In this document: piece after piece, positions 16,201-21,593 of the stretch
Numbering within the stretch: position 1 is the first letter of the stretch
How the letters are laid out: each line of letters starts with the position of its first letter
Origin: a virus
Virus record (IMG/VR): IMGVR_UViG_3300022851_000131
Span: 1 to 21,593 of that record
DNA length: 21,593 nucleotides
Reading direction: 5' to 3' (one strand)
Notes under the pieces: generated by a model
What the model saw: the letters and a program-made list of their open reading frames with translations, nothing else
The model's database searches: none
Told to the model about the DNA's origin: nothing
Translations under genes and position numbers: made by a program

Positions 16201-18409
16201 TTACGCCGCAGCGTCACGCGCACAGGGCGAAGCTAACAAAGATTCCGCCATTCAAACAGCGGTATTATCCAACCCCAATATTGTCAATCACCTTGGCTCG
16301 TCAACAACTACATGGGGCGCGCCTTCTGGTGGCTTTAATATGGGGCCGGGTGCGCAAAATCAACAGATTGCCGGTGGTCTTTACGATGACGGTCAATCTA
16401 ACGCGCCACAAAGCTATCAAAGCGGGTTTGACACTGCTGATTTGGGAGGGGCTGATAATTCGGTTCTTAGCGCCTATAGAGCGGCGTCTCAGAATTTGGA
16501 AAGACGAACTCCTATGGAAAGACCATCGTCCGGAATAGGCAATGGTGTTGCCATTCGCGGACGGAGTCAACCCAATGTGACAGAGGCAGATAGATTGCCT
16601 TATCAAGCAATGCCTGTGCAAGCCGGTGTGACTGGATCCAATGGGTTTAACATGCGCGGGCCGGAAGGCACTAGATCGGATGGGCGAGTATTAGCGCAAA
16701 ACAATATGCGAAACAATCAGCCAAATATGGGATTTAGTGGCGATGCGGGCAACGAGGGCGGAAACGGCAATCAATTGTCTAACCAAATTCGTCAAAACAT
16801 TCGCAATATGTCGAACGGAACCCCCAATGCTGTAAGTGGTGTTCCTCAAGCAACGGTAACTCAAAGACTATCGCCTACTGAACAAGCAAAGTATGACAGA
16901 AACGCAAACCTTGACCTTAGATTGCTGGATACGGCAACAAGCGGGCTTGGTCGCGTGAATAACATGATGGATACGCCATTTGACATGAGCCAAGTTAACG
17001 ACTTTGAAACGCCTAATTATGGCGACCAAAGCCGCAATACGCTGTCAACCGCTGGAATGCAGGACTTTTCTGGCATTAATTTAAACTCTTTGGCGCCTGA
17101 AGGCAGTATTGATAGTTCCGGTTTTAGAGACTTTGCGCCTCTTAATGCCGATGGTATGCAGAATTTAACAGGCATAAATACCGATGCTTTGTCGCCCGAA
17201 GGCAGCATTGACAGATCATCGTTTAATGACTTTAGCTCGTTAAACAGCGACGGCTTGGGTAATTTTCAAGGCGTTAATGCCGGAGAACTAAGCCCAACAG
17301 GGCAGCTTCAGAACCTTGATCAACGAAACATGCAGGGCACTGTAGGCGGTCAAGAAGACGTATTTCAAGCAATGGTTGCTAGGCGAGGCGATGAATTCCG
17401 CAACCAGCGTGAGCAGATGGAATCAGACCTTATTTCGCGTGGCTTCACGCCGGGCACTGAAGGCTATCGTAGTCGAATGGCTGAAATTGACGAACAGCAA
17501 AATGATTTTAATCTTGGTGCTAGGGTGCAGGCCGGTCAAGAGCAAGAGCGTTTGTTTAACATGGAATCAAGATCAAGGGATCAGGATTTTGGTCAAAATG
17601 CTCAAGTAGCGCAATTTGCTCAACAGCTTCGTGCGCAAGGCATGAACGAACAGCAGATTGAGGCGCAAATAAACAATCAGATTAGAGGCCAGCAGTTTAA
17701 TGAGAGAAACGCAACCTCTCAAAACGCTATGGCGGAACGAGGCCAACGCTTTAACGAGCAAGAAAGAACTGCTCAATTTGCCCAGCAGCTTCGAGCTTCC
17801 GGTTTGAATGAACAGCAAGTGCAAGCGCAAATTAATCAGCAGATTAGAGGCCAGCAGTTCAGTGAGCGCGGCGTCGTTTCTGACGATGCTAGAGCGCAGC
17901 GCGGGCAGCAATTCCAAGAGCAAGAACGCATGGCAGTGTTTCAGCAAGGCTTGAGATCGCAAGGTCTAAACGAACAACAAGTGCAGGCGCGTACTAATGC
18001 CGCTATTCGTAGCCAGCAGTTTGGCGAGCGTGGCGCACAAGCTTCGTTTAACCAGTCTGAGCAGAACCGGGTAGCCCAGCAAGAAAGAGCCTCACAGGGC
18101 GCCAATGACTCGCAGAGAGCGCAGCAAATTCAAGAGCAGGCGTATTTGCGTCAATTGCCATTGAACGAAATTAATGCGCTTAGAACAGGCACACAGGCCA
18201 ACATGCCACAGTTTCAGGCTTACACAGGCGCTAATGTTGCTCCGCCCCCTGTATTTGATGCTTCAGTAGCCAAAGGAAATTACGATATGAGCGCATTCCA
18301 AGCAGGCCCTGACATTATGGGCGGCTTGTTTAGTCTTGGCGGTGCAGCGTTAGGCGGGCCATTAGGAGCTAAAGCCGGCGGGTTTGCAGCAGGACTGATG
18401 GGGGGGTAA
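16172..18409 (+). CDS. Large internal virion / DNA-ejection protein, Q/N-rich with two repeat families
   Basis: The 745-residue protein begins MGKKAPPPPDYAAASRAQGE, a start seen in many podovirus internal/tail proteins. The first third is disordered and G/N/Q-rich. Residues 296-394 hold three roughly 33-residue repeats (SLAPEGSIDSSGF, ALSPEGSIDRSSF; last copy degenerate). Residues 480-641 hold three 54-residue repeats (FAQQLRAQGMNEQQIEAQIN, FAQQLRASGLNEQQVQAQIN, FQQGLRSQGLNEQQVQARTN), helical and probably coiled. The C-terminus is a glycine/alanine-rich hydrophobic stretch (GGLFSLGGAALGGPLGAKAG), as in ejection proteins that enter membranes. Its neighbours are other internal-type proteins. 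No enzyme domain is seen. Confidence 0.7.
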   Translation: MGKKAPPPPDYAAASRAQGEANKDSAIQTAVLSNPNIVNHLGSSTTTWGAPSGGFNMGPGAQNQQIAGGLYDDGQSNAPQSYQSGFDTADLGGADNSVLSAYRAASQNLERRTPMERPSSGIGNGVAIRGRSQPNVTEADRLPYQAMPVQAGVTGSNGFNMRGPEGTRSDGRVLAQNNMRNNQPNMGFSGDAGNEGGNGNQLSNQIRQNIRNMSNGTPNAVSGVPQATVTQRLSPTEQAKYDRNANLDLRLLDTATSGLGRVNNMMDTPFDMSQVNDFETPNYGDQSRNTLSTAGMQDFSGINLNSLAPEGSIDSSGFRDFAPLNADGMQNLTGINTDALSPEGSIDRSSFNDFSSLNSDGLGNFQGVNAGELSPTGQLQNLDQRNMQGTVGGQEDVFQAMVARRGDEFRNQREQMESDLISRGFTPGTEGYRSRMAEIDEQQNDFNLGARVQAGQEQERLFNMESRSRDQDFGQNAQVAQFAQQLRAQGMNEQQIEAQINNQIRGQQFNERNATSQNAMAERGQRFNEQERTAQFAQQLRASGLNEQQVQAQINQQIRGQQFSERGVVSDDARAQRGQQFQEQERMAVFQQGLRSQGLNEQQVQARTNAAIRSQQFGERGAQASFNQSEQNRVAQQERASQGANDSQRAQQIQEQAYLRQLPLNEINALRTGTQANMPQFQAYTGANVAPPPVFDASVAKGNYDMSAFQAGPDIMGGLFSLGGAALGGPLGAKAGGFAAGLMGG
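17057..17340 (+). repeat. 33-codon tandem repeats within the internal protein gene
   Basis: Copies at 17057-17155 and 17156-17254 are complete (99 bases each) and share PEGSID, F.DF and LN.DG words. A third copy starts at 17255 and decays after SPTGQ. The start phase is set by ATGCAG at 17057 and 17156. Confidence 0.75.
17609..18094 (+). repeat. 54-codon tandem repeats within the internal protein gene
   Basis: Three units of 162 bases, at 17609-17770, 17771-17932 and 17933-18094. They share LNEQQ-x-x-A-x-x-N and QQF-x-ERG words. The DNA word CAGATTAGAGGCCAGCAGTT recurs exactly 162 bases apart (17678 and 17840), with a third, changed copy 162 bases further on, indicating internal duplication with drift. 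Confidence 0.8.
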
Positions 18410-18412
18410 ATA

Positions 18413-19714
18413 ATGCCATATACACCACAAAAGAATTTAAATCGACGCCAGGCTTTGATGTCTGCATTGCAGAATACCCCAATGAACAATACGGGTAAGC
18501 GTACCGATGTCGGTCGAGGCTTGGCGCACATGCTTAGGCAGTACCAAGCAGGCCAAATGGGTCGGCAGATGGATACCGAGCAGGCTGAAAACGAGCAAAT
18601 GGTTGTTGATGAAACCAATACGTTTGGCAACTCAATGGGAGCCTTTCAAACCGGGGTCGCAGATCAAGGCGTTGGGCCTATGCGCCCGGGGGAAATGCCT
18701 ACGTTCCAAACACCTGAAGTATCAAACAGGTCAGCCGCATTTAAAGAAGCCATGATGATGCGCGACCTTGATCAAAAAGACGCCATGAATTTGCAGGAGT
18801 CTAAAAACAATGCCGCGCTTTCTCGAACGCGTGAAGGCGGCAGGGCTGCAAACTTGGAACTTGAAGACGAAGATTATTTAGACACCGATCCTAACAGCCC
18901 TACTTATGGGGAGCAGCGAACAAGAAAATCAATATTTAACCCCTCGACTGGAACTCTGACGCCTTATGACGAATATCAAGCGCAAGTCAATTCGCCTAAC
19001 CAAAGCGGTGTTTCAAGCGCCTTAACTAAAGCGGCGGCGGCTGTAACCGCAAATCAGCCGCGCCCAACAGAATTTTCTAAAGGAAATGACGACCCGTTTA
19101 AAAACTCTAAGCGACCGCAAGAAATAGCTTCGAGGGTTGGGGCGCAAAAGGGTGTTAATGACATGCTTTCTACAATGGGCAAATCGTTTCAGCAATTGTA
19201 TTCGATGGGCGGGGCGGTTAGTGGCGACCAAGACGCACTAACGAACCTAAAAAACGGCATTATGGGCACCGAAACATTTAACAACTTGCAGTCAAGAATA
19301 TCGCCTGATGCGGCTTCGTCTATTCGCAGAACTATTATGGCAACGCGACCACTGCTTATTGGTAAGATAATACAAGCATCGGATATGTCGGCTAAGGCTC
19401 TTGATAGTAACCGAGAGCTAGACTTCTACCTTTCTGCACTTGCTGACCCTGGCAGAGACATTCAAAGTCAAATGTCGGCAGTCGTAAAGCTTAATGAAAT
19501 GATGGGTGGCGGTATAAGTCTTGGGCCTTGGGCTGAATCTGTAACAGATATTCAAAATCAGTTGTCGAAAGAGTTTAATCAGTCGCTAGACAAGAACAAA
19601 GCCGACATGAGCTACACAATGGAAAAATACGGGATGAGCGAGGAAGATCTTAGGGAAAAGTTAAGCCAGAACCTAAGCGAAAGCTGGCAGTCTCAAATGT
19701 CTGAGGAATATTAG
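18413..19714 (+). CDS. Internal virion protein, putative
   Basis: The 433-residue protein has no signal or membrane segment. It starts MPYTPQKNLNRRQALMSALQ, is M/Q/N-rich, and carries a helical N-terminal half (GLAHMLRQYQAGQMGRQMDT). A disordered central part contains DTDPNSPTYGEQRTRKSIFN. The C-terminal half is helical (ISPDAASSIRRTIMATRPLL; GMSEEDLREKLSQNLSESWQ). Position and composition resemble the set of two to three internal core/ejection proteins found after the nozzle in T7- and P22-like phages. The RBS is a G-rich run overlapping the upstream gene's end. Confidence 0.65.
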   Translation: MPYTPQKNLNRRQALMSALQNTPMNNTGKRTDVGRGLAHMLRQYQAGQMGRQMDTEQAENEQMVVDETNTFGNSMGAFQTGVADQGVGPMRPGEMPTFQTPEVSNRSAAFKEAMMMRDLDQKDAMNLQESKNNAALSRTREGGRAANLELEDEDYLDTDPNSPTYGEQRTRKSIFNPSTGTLTPYDEYQAQVNSPNQSGVSSALTKAAAAVTANQPRPTEFSKGNDDPFKNSKRPQEIASRVGAQKGVNDMLSTMGKSFQQLYSMGGAVSGDQDALTNLKNGIMGTETFNNLQSRISPDAASSIRRTIMATRPLLIGKIIQASDMSAKALDSNRELDFYLSALADPGRDIQSQMSAVVKLNEMMGGGISLGPWAESVTDIQNQLSKEFNQSLDKNKADMSYTMEKYGMSEEDLREKLSQNLSESWQSQMSEEY

Positions 19715-19716
19715 AA

Positions 19717-21042
19717 ATGCCTTTAGACCTTATAACAGGCGAAAGTGACGACGAAAGCGAAGACTTTTCTTTTGACCGTATGCTGGGAAATATCATTCCG
19801 TCTGGAAAGCAATTTGTTGACGACCTCACGTACCCTATTAGACACCCTATAGACACCGTTAAAGGGCTTAACCAGATAGGCTCTGGCATTGGTCAAATGC
19901 TTGCGTCTGACAACCCCGAAGCGTTTGTAAGCCCTGCCAACGTAGGCGCGGCTAAAGCTGTCAAGCAGTTTTACATTGACCGATACGGCGGCGTCAATAA
20001 TCTAAAAAACACGATTGAAAATGACCCCGTAGGTTTTGTTAGCGACTTATCCACTATTCTAACTGGTGGAGCTGCTGCGGCATCAAATGTAGGCGGTAAA
20101 GTCGGGAGTGGAGCTGCTGCAATAAGGAAGGTTGCCGCCGCACTTGACCCTGCCGCAATGCCGACTAATTTGGCAAAAGCACTGCCGTCAAAGTCTATTT
20201 ATAAGACAGGAATGAAATTCAAATACGGGCAAGGCAAAGGAAAGGTCACTCAATCGGAGGCTTCAAATCTGGCTAACCAAGCCTACGACCTTGAATTACG
20301 ACCTAACGATGTCGGAATGGACACCTTAGCAGATGAAAAAATTCGCAGGGGCCAAGCAATTGACCAATCTGTTCGAGATATGCCGCAAGACCCTATTCCT
20401 GTTGATGAAATTGGGAGATTTCTGCCTGATGAAAGAGCAAAAATGCTTGGCACAGGACAAGGATCAAAGCGGTCAAGCTATGTCGACCAATTTGATTCAG
20501 CTACAGAAGACTATTTAAACAGGGTTGTTGATGCCAATGGCGATACGATGACTCCAATGCAAATGCAGGGCGCAAAAATAGGACGATATAGCGAAGCTGG
20601 CCCGGCAGCATACGGCGATGCGCCTAAGTTCCCTGCTGAAGTTCAAGCAAATAAAACAATGGGTCGAGGCGCTAAAGAAGCTATTGAAAGCAGAAATCCA
20701 AAGGTAAGGGCTTTGAATAAAGCTTATGCAGACGTTAAAAAAATGGGTGACGCGCTGCCGTTTAACAGCCCTAGCGCGTTTGGTACAGATTATAGCTCTA
20801 GGGTGGTTGCTGGTTCCGCCGGTATGGGGCAGGTTCCTACGTCAATGGTGGGCTTTATGTCTCACTTACTGAGAACAAAAGCAATTGACGCCGCTCTTGC
20901 TATTAAATGGGCAGGGAAAAACCCAACAAAAAATAACATTCTTAGGCAGGCAAGTAGACAAGCTGGAATTCAGACTGAAACAGCAGATGAAGCAATGCCT
21001 GAAGACTTGCTAGAAAAATACGGAATAGGAGAAAGCAACTAA
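19717..21042 (+). CDS. Internal virion / ejection-type protein, putative
   Basis: The 441-residue protein is preceded by GAGGA about 9 bases before its ATG and by only 2 bases of intergenic DNA. The N-terminus is acidic (ESDDESEDFSFD). A region with LTYPIRHPIDTVKGLNQIGS is followed by helical A/G-rich segments (VGFVSDLSTILTGGAAAASN; KVGSGAAAIRKVAAALDPAA) that resemble parts of podovirus internal core and P22 gp16/gp20-like ejection proteins. The rest is polar and helical, ending EKYGIGESN. No transglycosylase motif is evident. Reading continues open past its TAA to 21141. Confidence 0.65.
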   Translation: MPLDLITGESDDESEDFSFDRMLGNIIPSGKQFVDDLTYPIRHPIDTVKGLNQIGSGIGQMLASDNPEAFVSPANVGAAKAVKQFYIDRYGGVNNLKNTIENDPVGFVSDLSTILTGGAAAASNVGGKVGSGAAAIRKVAAALDPAAMPTNLAKALPSKSIYKTGMKFKYGQGKGKVTQSEASNLANQAYDLELRPNDVGMDTLADEKIRRGQAIDQSVRDMPQDPIPVDEIGRFLPDERAKMLGTGQGSKRSSYVDQFDSATEDYLNRVVDANGDTMTPMQMQGAKIGRYSEAGPAAYGDAPKFPAEVQANKTMGRGAKEAIESRNPKVRALNKAYADVKKMGDALPFNSPSAFGTDYSSRVVAGSAGMGQVPTSMVGFMSHLLRTKAIDAALAIKWAGKNPTKNNILRQASRQAGIQTETADEAMPEDLLEKYGIGESN

Positions 21043-21043
21043 T

Positions 21044-21141
21044 GTGGCCCAAACAGAATAGTACGAATTCTTTGTAGTAAACGGCATAATGCCTCCAATA
21101 ATTTAACTTCAAGTGTGCCAGTAATGGTAACAGGAGGGTAG
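21044..21141 (+). pseudogene. Decayed small gene before the tail fibre (candidate)
   Basis: From GTG at 21044 the reading is VAQTE, TAG stop, YEFFVVNGIMPPI, then a -1 shift into LTSSVPVMVTGG and a stop at 21139-21141. Joined, this reads like a compact 30-residue protein placed where small tail-associated genes often lie. The intact frames are interrupted by one stop and one frameshift, so it is either a pseudogene or a stretch with sequence errors. Alternative: the frame of the upstream gene is open from its TAA to 21141 and gives a 32-residue readthrough tail that also ends LTSSVPVMVTGG. Confidence 0.4.
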
Positions 21142-21148
21142 TAGAATT
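21132..21148 (+). promoter_or_regulatory. Strong RBS with ATT start codon (tail fibre)
   Basis: AGGAGGG (21132-21138) is followed after 7 bases by ATT (21146-21148), which opens the tail fibre frame. An in-frame TAA at 21128-21130 rules out an upstream start, and no ATG, GTG or TTG lies between. ATT (AUU) is a known rare initiation codon (for example in infC). Confidence 0.6.
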
Positions 21149-21593
21149 CCTAGAAATGGCTCTGGTACATACGCGCTTACAAGCGGTCAACCTGTTGTCA
21201 CCGGCACAGTAATTTCATCATCGGTGCACAACGCTTTGGCGGCTGATATTGCGGCTGAATTAACGAATTCTCTCGATAAAGACGGTCAAACGGTTGTTAC
21301 GGGCGATATTGACTTTAACGGTCTAGCCTTGATTCTTGATCCTACCGGCAATACTAAGATGCAAGCCGGCACAGACAATATTTTGGTGATAACGATCAAT
21401 AATGCGGCTGATTTCGAGCTTAGGGCTAACATCCTAAGAGCTTTATCTGGCTCGGTTATTGAGACAAACACCATTAACGAAACCACTTCCGGTTCTGGCG
21501 TCACTATTGATGGGGTTTTGGTCAAGGATGGGGGAGTTAACGGTTCATTAGGCGCAACTACCCCGTCTACTATTGCTGGCACGACACTAGACA
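21146..21593 (+). CDS. Tail fibre / receptor-binding protein, N-terminal fragment
   Basis: The frame runs open from ATT at 21146 to the window edge, about 149 codons. It reads (M)PRNGSGTYALTSGQPVVTG, then TVISSSVHNALAADIAAELT and NSLDKDGQTVVTGDIDFNG. This is the recurrent N-terminal anchor of podovirus tail fibres and spikes ('MPRNGSGTY.lp.gnpVvtGt.Iss..hN....Dia.alt.sl..dGqt'). It continues with strand repeats (IDGVLVKDGGVNGSLGATTP). The anchor would bind the tail and the missing C-terminus would contact the host. ATT as start is inferred from the RBS and conserved N-terminus; sequence error is an alternative. Confidence 0.75.
   Translation, partial: MPRNGSGTYALTSGQPVVTGTVISSSVHNALAADIAAELTNSLDKDGQTVVTGDIDFNGLALILDPTGNTKMQAGTDNILVITINNAADFELRANILRALSGSVIETNTINETTSGSGVTIDGVLVKDGGVNGSLGATTPSTIAGTTLD

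What the first reader, a model, noticed from the sequence alone, without database searches (positions are those of the whole stretch)
21128..21200. Tail fibre frame starts at ATT behind a near-perfect Shine-Dalgarno
The conserved N-terminus PRNGSGTY follows ATT, AGGAGGG lies 7 bases upstream, and an in-frame TAA plus the absence of ATG/GTG/TTG leave no other start near it. A receptor-binding gene with an AUU start would be unusual and could tune fibre expression. It is the second non-canonical start in this window.
Basis: partly seen in the sequence, partly recalled or inferred. Interest (0 to 1): 0.7.

Follow-up and report, generated by a model that had tools for sequence, protein, structure and literature searches.

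The report
Phage tail-fibre gene starting at AUU
A gene for a phage tail fibre almost certainly begins with the rare start codon AUU behind a very strong ribosome-binding site, and relatives in other phages do the same, so such genes are being mis-annotated and may be made at a deliberately low rate.

Summary
ATT lies exactly where homologous tail fibres have their start. Among 125 distinct fibre 5' ends fetched without regard to start codon, 112 have ATG, 7 GTG, 2 TTG, 3 ATT and 1 ATC. The same N-terminus preceded by AAG/ACG/AGG/CAG/CCG/CGG occurs in 0 viral contigs, against 8 with ATT/ATC. The ATT/ATC starts have stronger Shine-Dalgarno pairing than nearly all 188 ATG fibre starts, and codons 2-26, upstream of any canonical start, evolve as coding sequence. 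So AUU is very probably a real, SD-compensated weak start; that it tunes fibre dosage is inferred. A control over other genes turned up a second late gene family ('IDP', between fibre and lysis genes) with ATT or ATA directly behind a stop codon in 82 distinct contexts. AUU starts are known (infC; phage TP-J34 orf28), so this is a new variant of a known kind. No translation data exist here.

The parts
21146..21593 (+). tail-fibre reading frame from ATT, open to the window end; first 40 residues match phrog_24210 'tail fiber protein' positions 1-40
21146..21148 (+). ATT, proposed start codon, at the column where homologs have ATG/GTG/TTG
21132..21138 (+). Shine-Dalgarno AGGAGGG, 7 nt before ATT; pairing energy -10.8 kcal/mol, stronger than all 188 ATG fibre starts
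21128..21130 (+). in-frame TAA closing the fibre frame upstream
21124..21141 (+). out-of-frame short ORF ATG GTA ACA GGA GGG TAG, holding the SD; considered as a frameshift or coupling donor, not favoured
21224..21226 (+). first in-frame canonical codon (GTG, codon 27); would truncate the conserved N-terminus
19717..21042 (+). upstream gene (441 aa, no family match), ends 103 nt before the ATT

Best explanation
The fibre gene is translated from the AUU at 21146-21148. A near-perfect Shine-Dalgarno seven bases upstream holds the 30S subunit over AUU; initiator tRNA pairs imperfectly with it (with fMet as first residue, from general knowledge), so initiation works at a fraction of the AUG rate and is probably sensitive to IF3. 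Shown by sequence: position, absence of other starts, recurrence of ATT/ATC at this column in other fibres, SD strength, coding constraint on codons 2-26. Inferred: actual initiation there, reduced yield, and that low yield suits a virion part needed in few copies.
For: Start column: homologs L002, L003, L010, L011 have ATG exactly there. Unselected sample: ATT 3 and ATC 1 of 125 distinct fibre ends. All held ends: 5 of 213 ATT/ATC, every other end has ATG/GTG/TTG at or within 2 codons of the column. Codon control: ATH in 4+4 contigs, MVG in 0+0. L083/L085 and L076/L084 keep ATT while codons 2-50 differ by 11 synonymous and 0 non-synonymous changes. ATC kept in three contigs of different IMG samples, 99.6-99.98% identical. 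SD energy: ATG median -6.25, GTG -9.25, TTG -8.7, ATT/ATC -13.1 to -8.7; Mann-Whitney p 1e-4, not corrected for kinship. N-terminus under protein constraint: window vs L002 codons 2-26 dS 0.70, dN 0.24.
Against: No proteomics, ribosome profiling or reads. The only other copy of the window's allele is an identical contig, not a diverged relative. Few lineages: the tree needs 4 changes, 3 forced by starred branches, but holding all ATH rows as one clade is not rejected (p-AU 0.41, quick tree). L063/L082/L265 has an in-frame ATG eight codons upstream, so its ATT may be internal. No ATT start in the six named-phage fibres read: BUCT555, ctMlz233, Mwe-JY13 and ppBjS10J-1 have ATG or TTG, and Mx8 and Mx9 carry an N-terminal extension.
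Confidence: 0.86

Rival explanations
1. The ATT is a sequencing/assembly error or a recent inactivating mutation of ATG.
For: Metagenomic contig; its one twin is identical and may share reads.
Against: ATT/ATC recur at this column in other phages and samples; the equally reachable second-base variants (AAG/ACG/AGG) never do; the SD is stronger than at all 188 ATG starts, which error would not produce.
Confidence: 0.07
2. The fibre is entered by +1 frameshift from the short ORF ATG GTA ACA GGA GGG TAG at 21124, with AGGAGGG acting as an internal SD as in prfB (recalled).
For: An SD-like motif directly before a stop codon, and the +1 frame leads into the fibre frame.
Against: ATG 21124 has no SD of its own in the sequence; L083/L084 have in the fibre frame only AGG AGA GCT AAA after a stop, with ATT 7-8 nt behind AAAGGAG; the SD spacing suits ATT.
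Confidence: 0.03
3. Translation starts at GTG 21224, giving a fibre without its first 26 residues.
For: It is the first canonical codon and what gene callers would report.
Against: Codons 2-26 are conserved protein sequence in homologs whose ATG lies upstream.
Confidence: 0.03

Closest known systems
infC (IF3), ATT in E. coli, ATC in Streptomyces (PMC5472188, passage read)
   Same: Non-NTG start of the AUU/AUC kind; shows which codons are tolerated.
   Different: infC is autoregulated because its product is IF3; a fibre cannot close that loop.
S. aureus cvfC1 (AUU), ccpN and citZ (AUA), with extended SD (PMC13009471, section 10 read)
   Same: Near-cognate ATH start directed by a strong, extended SD; about 10% of AUG reporter output in poor medium.
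   Different: Cellular genes, shown by ribosome profiling and reporters; here sequence only.
Streptococcus phage TP-J34 orf28, predicted AUU start (PMC3952083, passage read)
   Same: Phage gene with AUU start; sequencing error excluded there by repeated PCR sequencing.
   Different: A gene in the region amplified with terS primers, not a fibre; one predicted case.
E. coli pcnB, AUU (seen only as a cited title)
   Same: AUU limiting expression.
   Different: Cellular gene.

Membership tests
Genes with a genuine AUU/AUC/AUA start | No in-frame NTG between upstream stop and conserved N-terminus | tested here: met
Genes with a genuine AUU/AUC/AUA start | Codon aligned with the start of homologs | tested here: met
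Genes with a genuine AUU/AUC/AUA start | Strong, well-spaced SD | tested here: met
   -10.8 kcal/mol, 7 nt
Genes with a genuine AUU/AUC/AUA start | Ribosome or N-terminal peptide at that codon | not testable with these tools
   no expression data
Genes with a genuine AUU/AUC/AUA start | Output rises on change to AUG and depends on IF3 | not testable with these tools
   needs reporters
Phage tail fibre (phrog_24210) | N-terminal profile match from residue 1 | tested here: met
   residues 1-40 to profile 1-40, E 7.7e-4, weak; no Pfam match
Phage tail fibre (phrog_24210) | Receptor-binding C-terminal domain | not testable with these tools
   the window ends inside the gene

The most novel reading that the evidence does not exclude
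A group of uncultivated phages uses AUU/AUC/AUA starts as a recurrent device for late genes: SD-driven in tail fibres, and stop-coupled (TAA directly followed by AUU or AUA) in the 'IDP' gene between fibre and lysis genes, giving a dosage throttle that depends on host IF3 and that standard gene callers cannot see.
Probability: 0.35. Interest if true: 0.72.

Novelty: new variant of a known kind. Interest (0 to 1): 0.52.

Why it matters
ATT is not among the start codons that the usual gene finders offer (general knowledge), so such fibres and IDP proteins would be truncated or missed, including the N-terminus, which in many fibres attaches to the virion. In 36 groups of prokaryote genomes only 1 of 61,358 ancestral AUG starts was seen to switch to AUU (PMC5622118, passages); here ATT/ATC make up 4 of 125 distinct ends of one gene (different scale and sampling, so a hint and not a rate). 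It gives natural constructs for testing when a strong SD, or a neighbouring stop codon, rescues AUU initiation.

Tried and rejected
RNA structure around the starts: z-scores +0.29, -1.15 (window), -1.07 (L087), -0.46 (L083), nothing notable. Promoter/terminator consensus 20900-21300: none. Phage-borne tRNA (a special initiator): none in the window or in 20 loci. Rfam at gathering cut-offs: none. Amber recoding or readthrough upstream: the frame VAQTE*YEFFVV... from GTG 21044 holds several stops and was left as chance. A domain-sharing contig, L009, has a different fibre with ATG that shares 127 identical nt at the point where the window ends. In the 954-gene start vote, L212 (ATT) was judged an artefact because the GNAT homologs start downstream; CGT in L158 was not followed; GAT in L289 is a misplaced vote in the same GNAT family; two GAA cases are IDP genes whose next codon is ATT or ATC. 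114 of 954 genes with a non-canonical voted column but a canonical codon nearby or upstream were set aside. In one search, rows L070, L075 and L078 of the IDP table picked a wrong ORF and were ignored. In one search, the single ATC hit (L403, 6 codons) was dropped as chance. In one search one listed window start (9432) was a wrong coordinate and is disregarded. One search failed on a file name and was rerun. Literature: searches listed no paper on AUU/AUC starts of fibre genes in the open-licence library searched.

Full report
What is there. The window is an IMG/VR virus record of 21,593 bases. It carries terminase, portal and major head protein genes by PHROG match and ends inside a tail-fibre frame. 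The fibre frame reads TAA CAG GAG GGT AGT AGA ATT CCT AGA AAT GGC (21128 onward), with AGGAGGG at 21132-21138. The first in-frame ATG/GTG/TTG after the ATT is GTG 21224, codon 27.

Is ATT the start? tblastn-confirmed homologs in viral contigs (80 loci kept of 249) were read at the aligned start. Of 73 loci whose N-terminus was present, 62 have ATG, 6 GTG, 1 TTG and 3 ATT, and in 1 (L024) the column is off the ATG. With all loci held then, a profile of the N-terminus found 213 distinct fibre 5' ends in 289 loci: 184 ATG plus 4 with ATG one or two codons off the column, 16 GTG, 4 TTG, 4 ATT, 1 ATC. This set is biased, because some loci were fetched by start-codon pattern. In the part fetched without regard to the start (L001-L080, L210-L288) the counts are 125 distinct: 110 ATG plus 2 shifted, 7 GTG, 2 TTG, 3 ATT, 1 ATC. 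One of the ATT rows is the window's own twin, L001.

The ATT/ATC cases. (i) Window, L001 and L089: identical over the 10,216 bases compared, so possibly one population or one read set. (ii) L086, L087, L088, L215: ATC behind GGGAGGGTAGTTCA, from three IMG samples, 99.6-99.98% identical. (iii) L083/L085 and L076/L084: ATT behind AAAGGAGAGCTAAA, preceded by an in-frame stop with only AGG AGA GCT AAA between. Codons 2-50 differ between L083 and L084 by 11 synonymous and no non-synonymous changes, and the ATT is kept. (iv) L063/L082/L265: ATT with GGAGG in place, but with an in-frame ATG eight codons upstream, so ambiguous.

Codon control. With the same downstream pattern, ATT/ATC/ATA in front gave 4 contigs in each of two fibre types, while AAG/ACG/AGG/CAG/CCG/CGG gave 0 in each. 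Random error would hit the second base of ATG about as often as the third. The 8 contigs are only about 3-4 lineages, so the control is suggestive in number and clear in direction. On a tree of 211 fibre ends the ATH label needs 4 changes, with 3 forced by starred branches, but a single ATH clade is not rejected (p-AU 0.41) and long branches are present.

SD compensation. Pairing with the anti-SD has median -6.25 kcal/mol for 188 ATG fibre starts, -9.25 for 16 GTG and -8.7 for 4 TTG. The five ATT/ATC starts have -13.1, -10.8, -10.8, -8.7 and -8.7. Three of the five beat every ATG start; for the other two, 6 of the 188 ATG starts are as strong or stronger. Kinship is not corrected for. In the window itself the start at 18413 has a still stronger SD (-12.0). 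Stronger SDs at weaker starts are a known trend (PMC5622118, passages), and S. aureus AUU/AUA genes have extended SDs and about 10% of AUG output in poor medium (PMC13009471, section 10).

Control over other genes, and a second family. Over 2724 distinct ORFs of all loci held then, 954 had a start column agreed by at least four homologs: 784 ATG, 32 GTG, 14 TTG, 114 set aside because a canonical codon lies near or upstream, and 10 with none (5 ATT, 1 ATC, 2 GAA, 1 CGT, 1 GAT). Three ATT and the ATC are fibres; one ATT (L079) and both GAA cases belong to a family beginning MIDP..., called 'IDP' here, which lies between fibre and holin/lysis-like genes. Of 34 distinct IDP 5' ends, 18 have ATG before IDP and 16 lack a canonical codon there, with ATT or ATC as the Ile codon; 3 of the 16 have a canonical codon further upstream in frame. 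A pattern scan for GGGG(C/T)T(G/A)TAA-ATH-GAY-CC found 107 contigs. Across held loci this gave 83 distinct contexts: 78 ATT, 4 ATA, 1 ATC, the last being a 6-codon chance hit, so 82. The TAA stands directly before the ATT by construction of the pattern. In 23 members of one subfamily, codons 5-17, before any canonical codon, show dS 0.45 and dN 0.065, so this stretch is under protein-level constraint. The upstream genes vary, L398 has an in-frame TAG just upstream and L140 has tandem TAA TAA, which speaks against simple readthrough. SDs there are weak (median -4.9), which suggests reinitiation by the terminating ribosome; this is inferred. In five distinct fibre ends on loci with such an IDP gene the fibre start is ATG (4) or GTG (1), so the two traits do not travel together.

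Named phages. Fibre homologs in BUCT555, ctMlz233, Mwe-JY13 and ppBjS10J-1 start at ATG or TTG, and Mx8 and Mx9 have an N-terminal extension. IDP homologs in DC31, ctnlZ23, ctjtQ328 and ct2t2046 have ATG or GTG available. Thus all ATT/ATC/ATA cases found here are uncultivated contigs.

How it most likely works. Shown by sequence: location, conservation and SD. Inferred: the strong SD recruits 30S, the AUU is accepted slowly by initiator tRNA, and IF3 discriminates against it, so that fibre yield is low for its mRNA level. Why low yield would be favoured (fibres are needed in few copies per virion) is general reasoning and was not tested.

Novelty. AUU starts are known in cells and one was predicted in phage TP-J34 (PMC3952083, passage). 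I saw no report of their recurrence in tail-fibre genes or in the IDP family in the searches (open-licence papers only).

Noticed in passing
L045:4818, L072:3764, L140:3010-3720 (- strand), L333, L374 and others: IDP gene family (mostly 164-244 aa) next to the lysis genes of phage contigs has ATT (78 distinct contexts) or ATA (4) directly behind a TAA stop, with weak SD; looks like stop-coupled reinitiation at a non-NTG codon.
   Followed up: partly
window 21467-21593 and L009:3001-3127: The window contig ends in a 127-nt stretch identical to another phage contig with a different, ATG-started fibre; the assembly breaks at shared fibre modules.
   Followed up: partly
L082/L063 upstream of the fibre: Short MPYVWRCQ reading frame fused in frame to the ATT, where sister phages (L045, L059) have a stop overlapping a GTG start: small overlapping leader ORFs before fibres.
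   Followed up: no
window 18393-18413: A run of G directly before the ATG of the gene at 18413 gives the strongest SD pairing of the window starts listed (-12.0).
   Followed up: no
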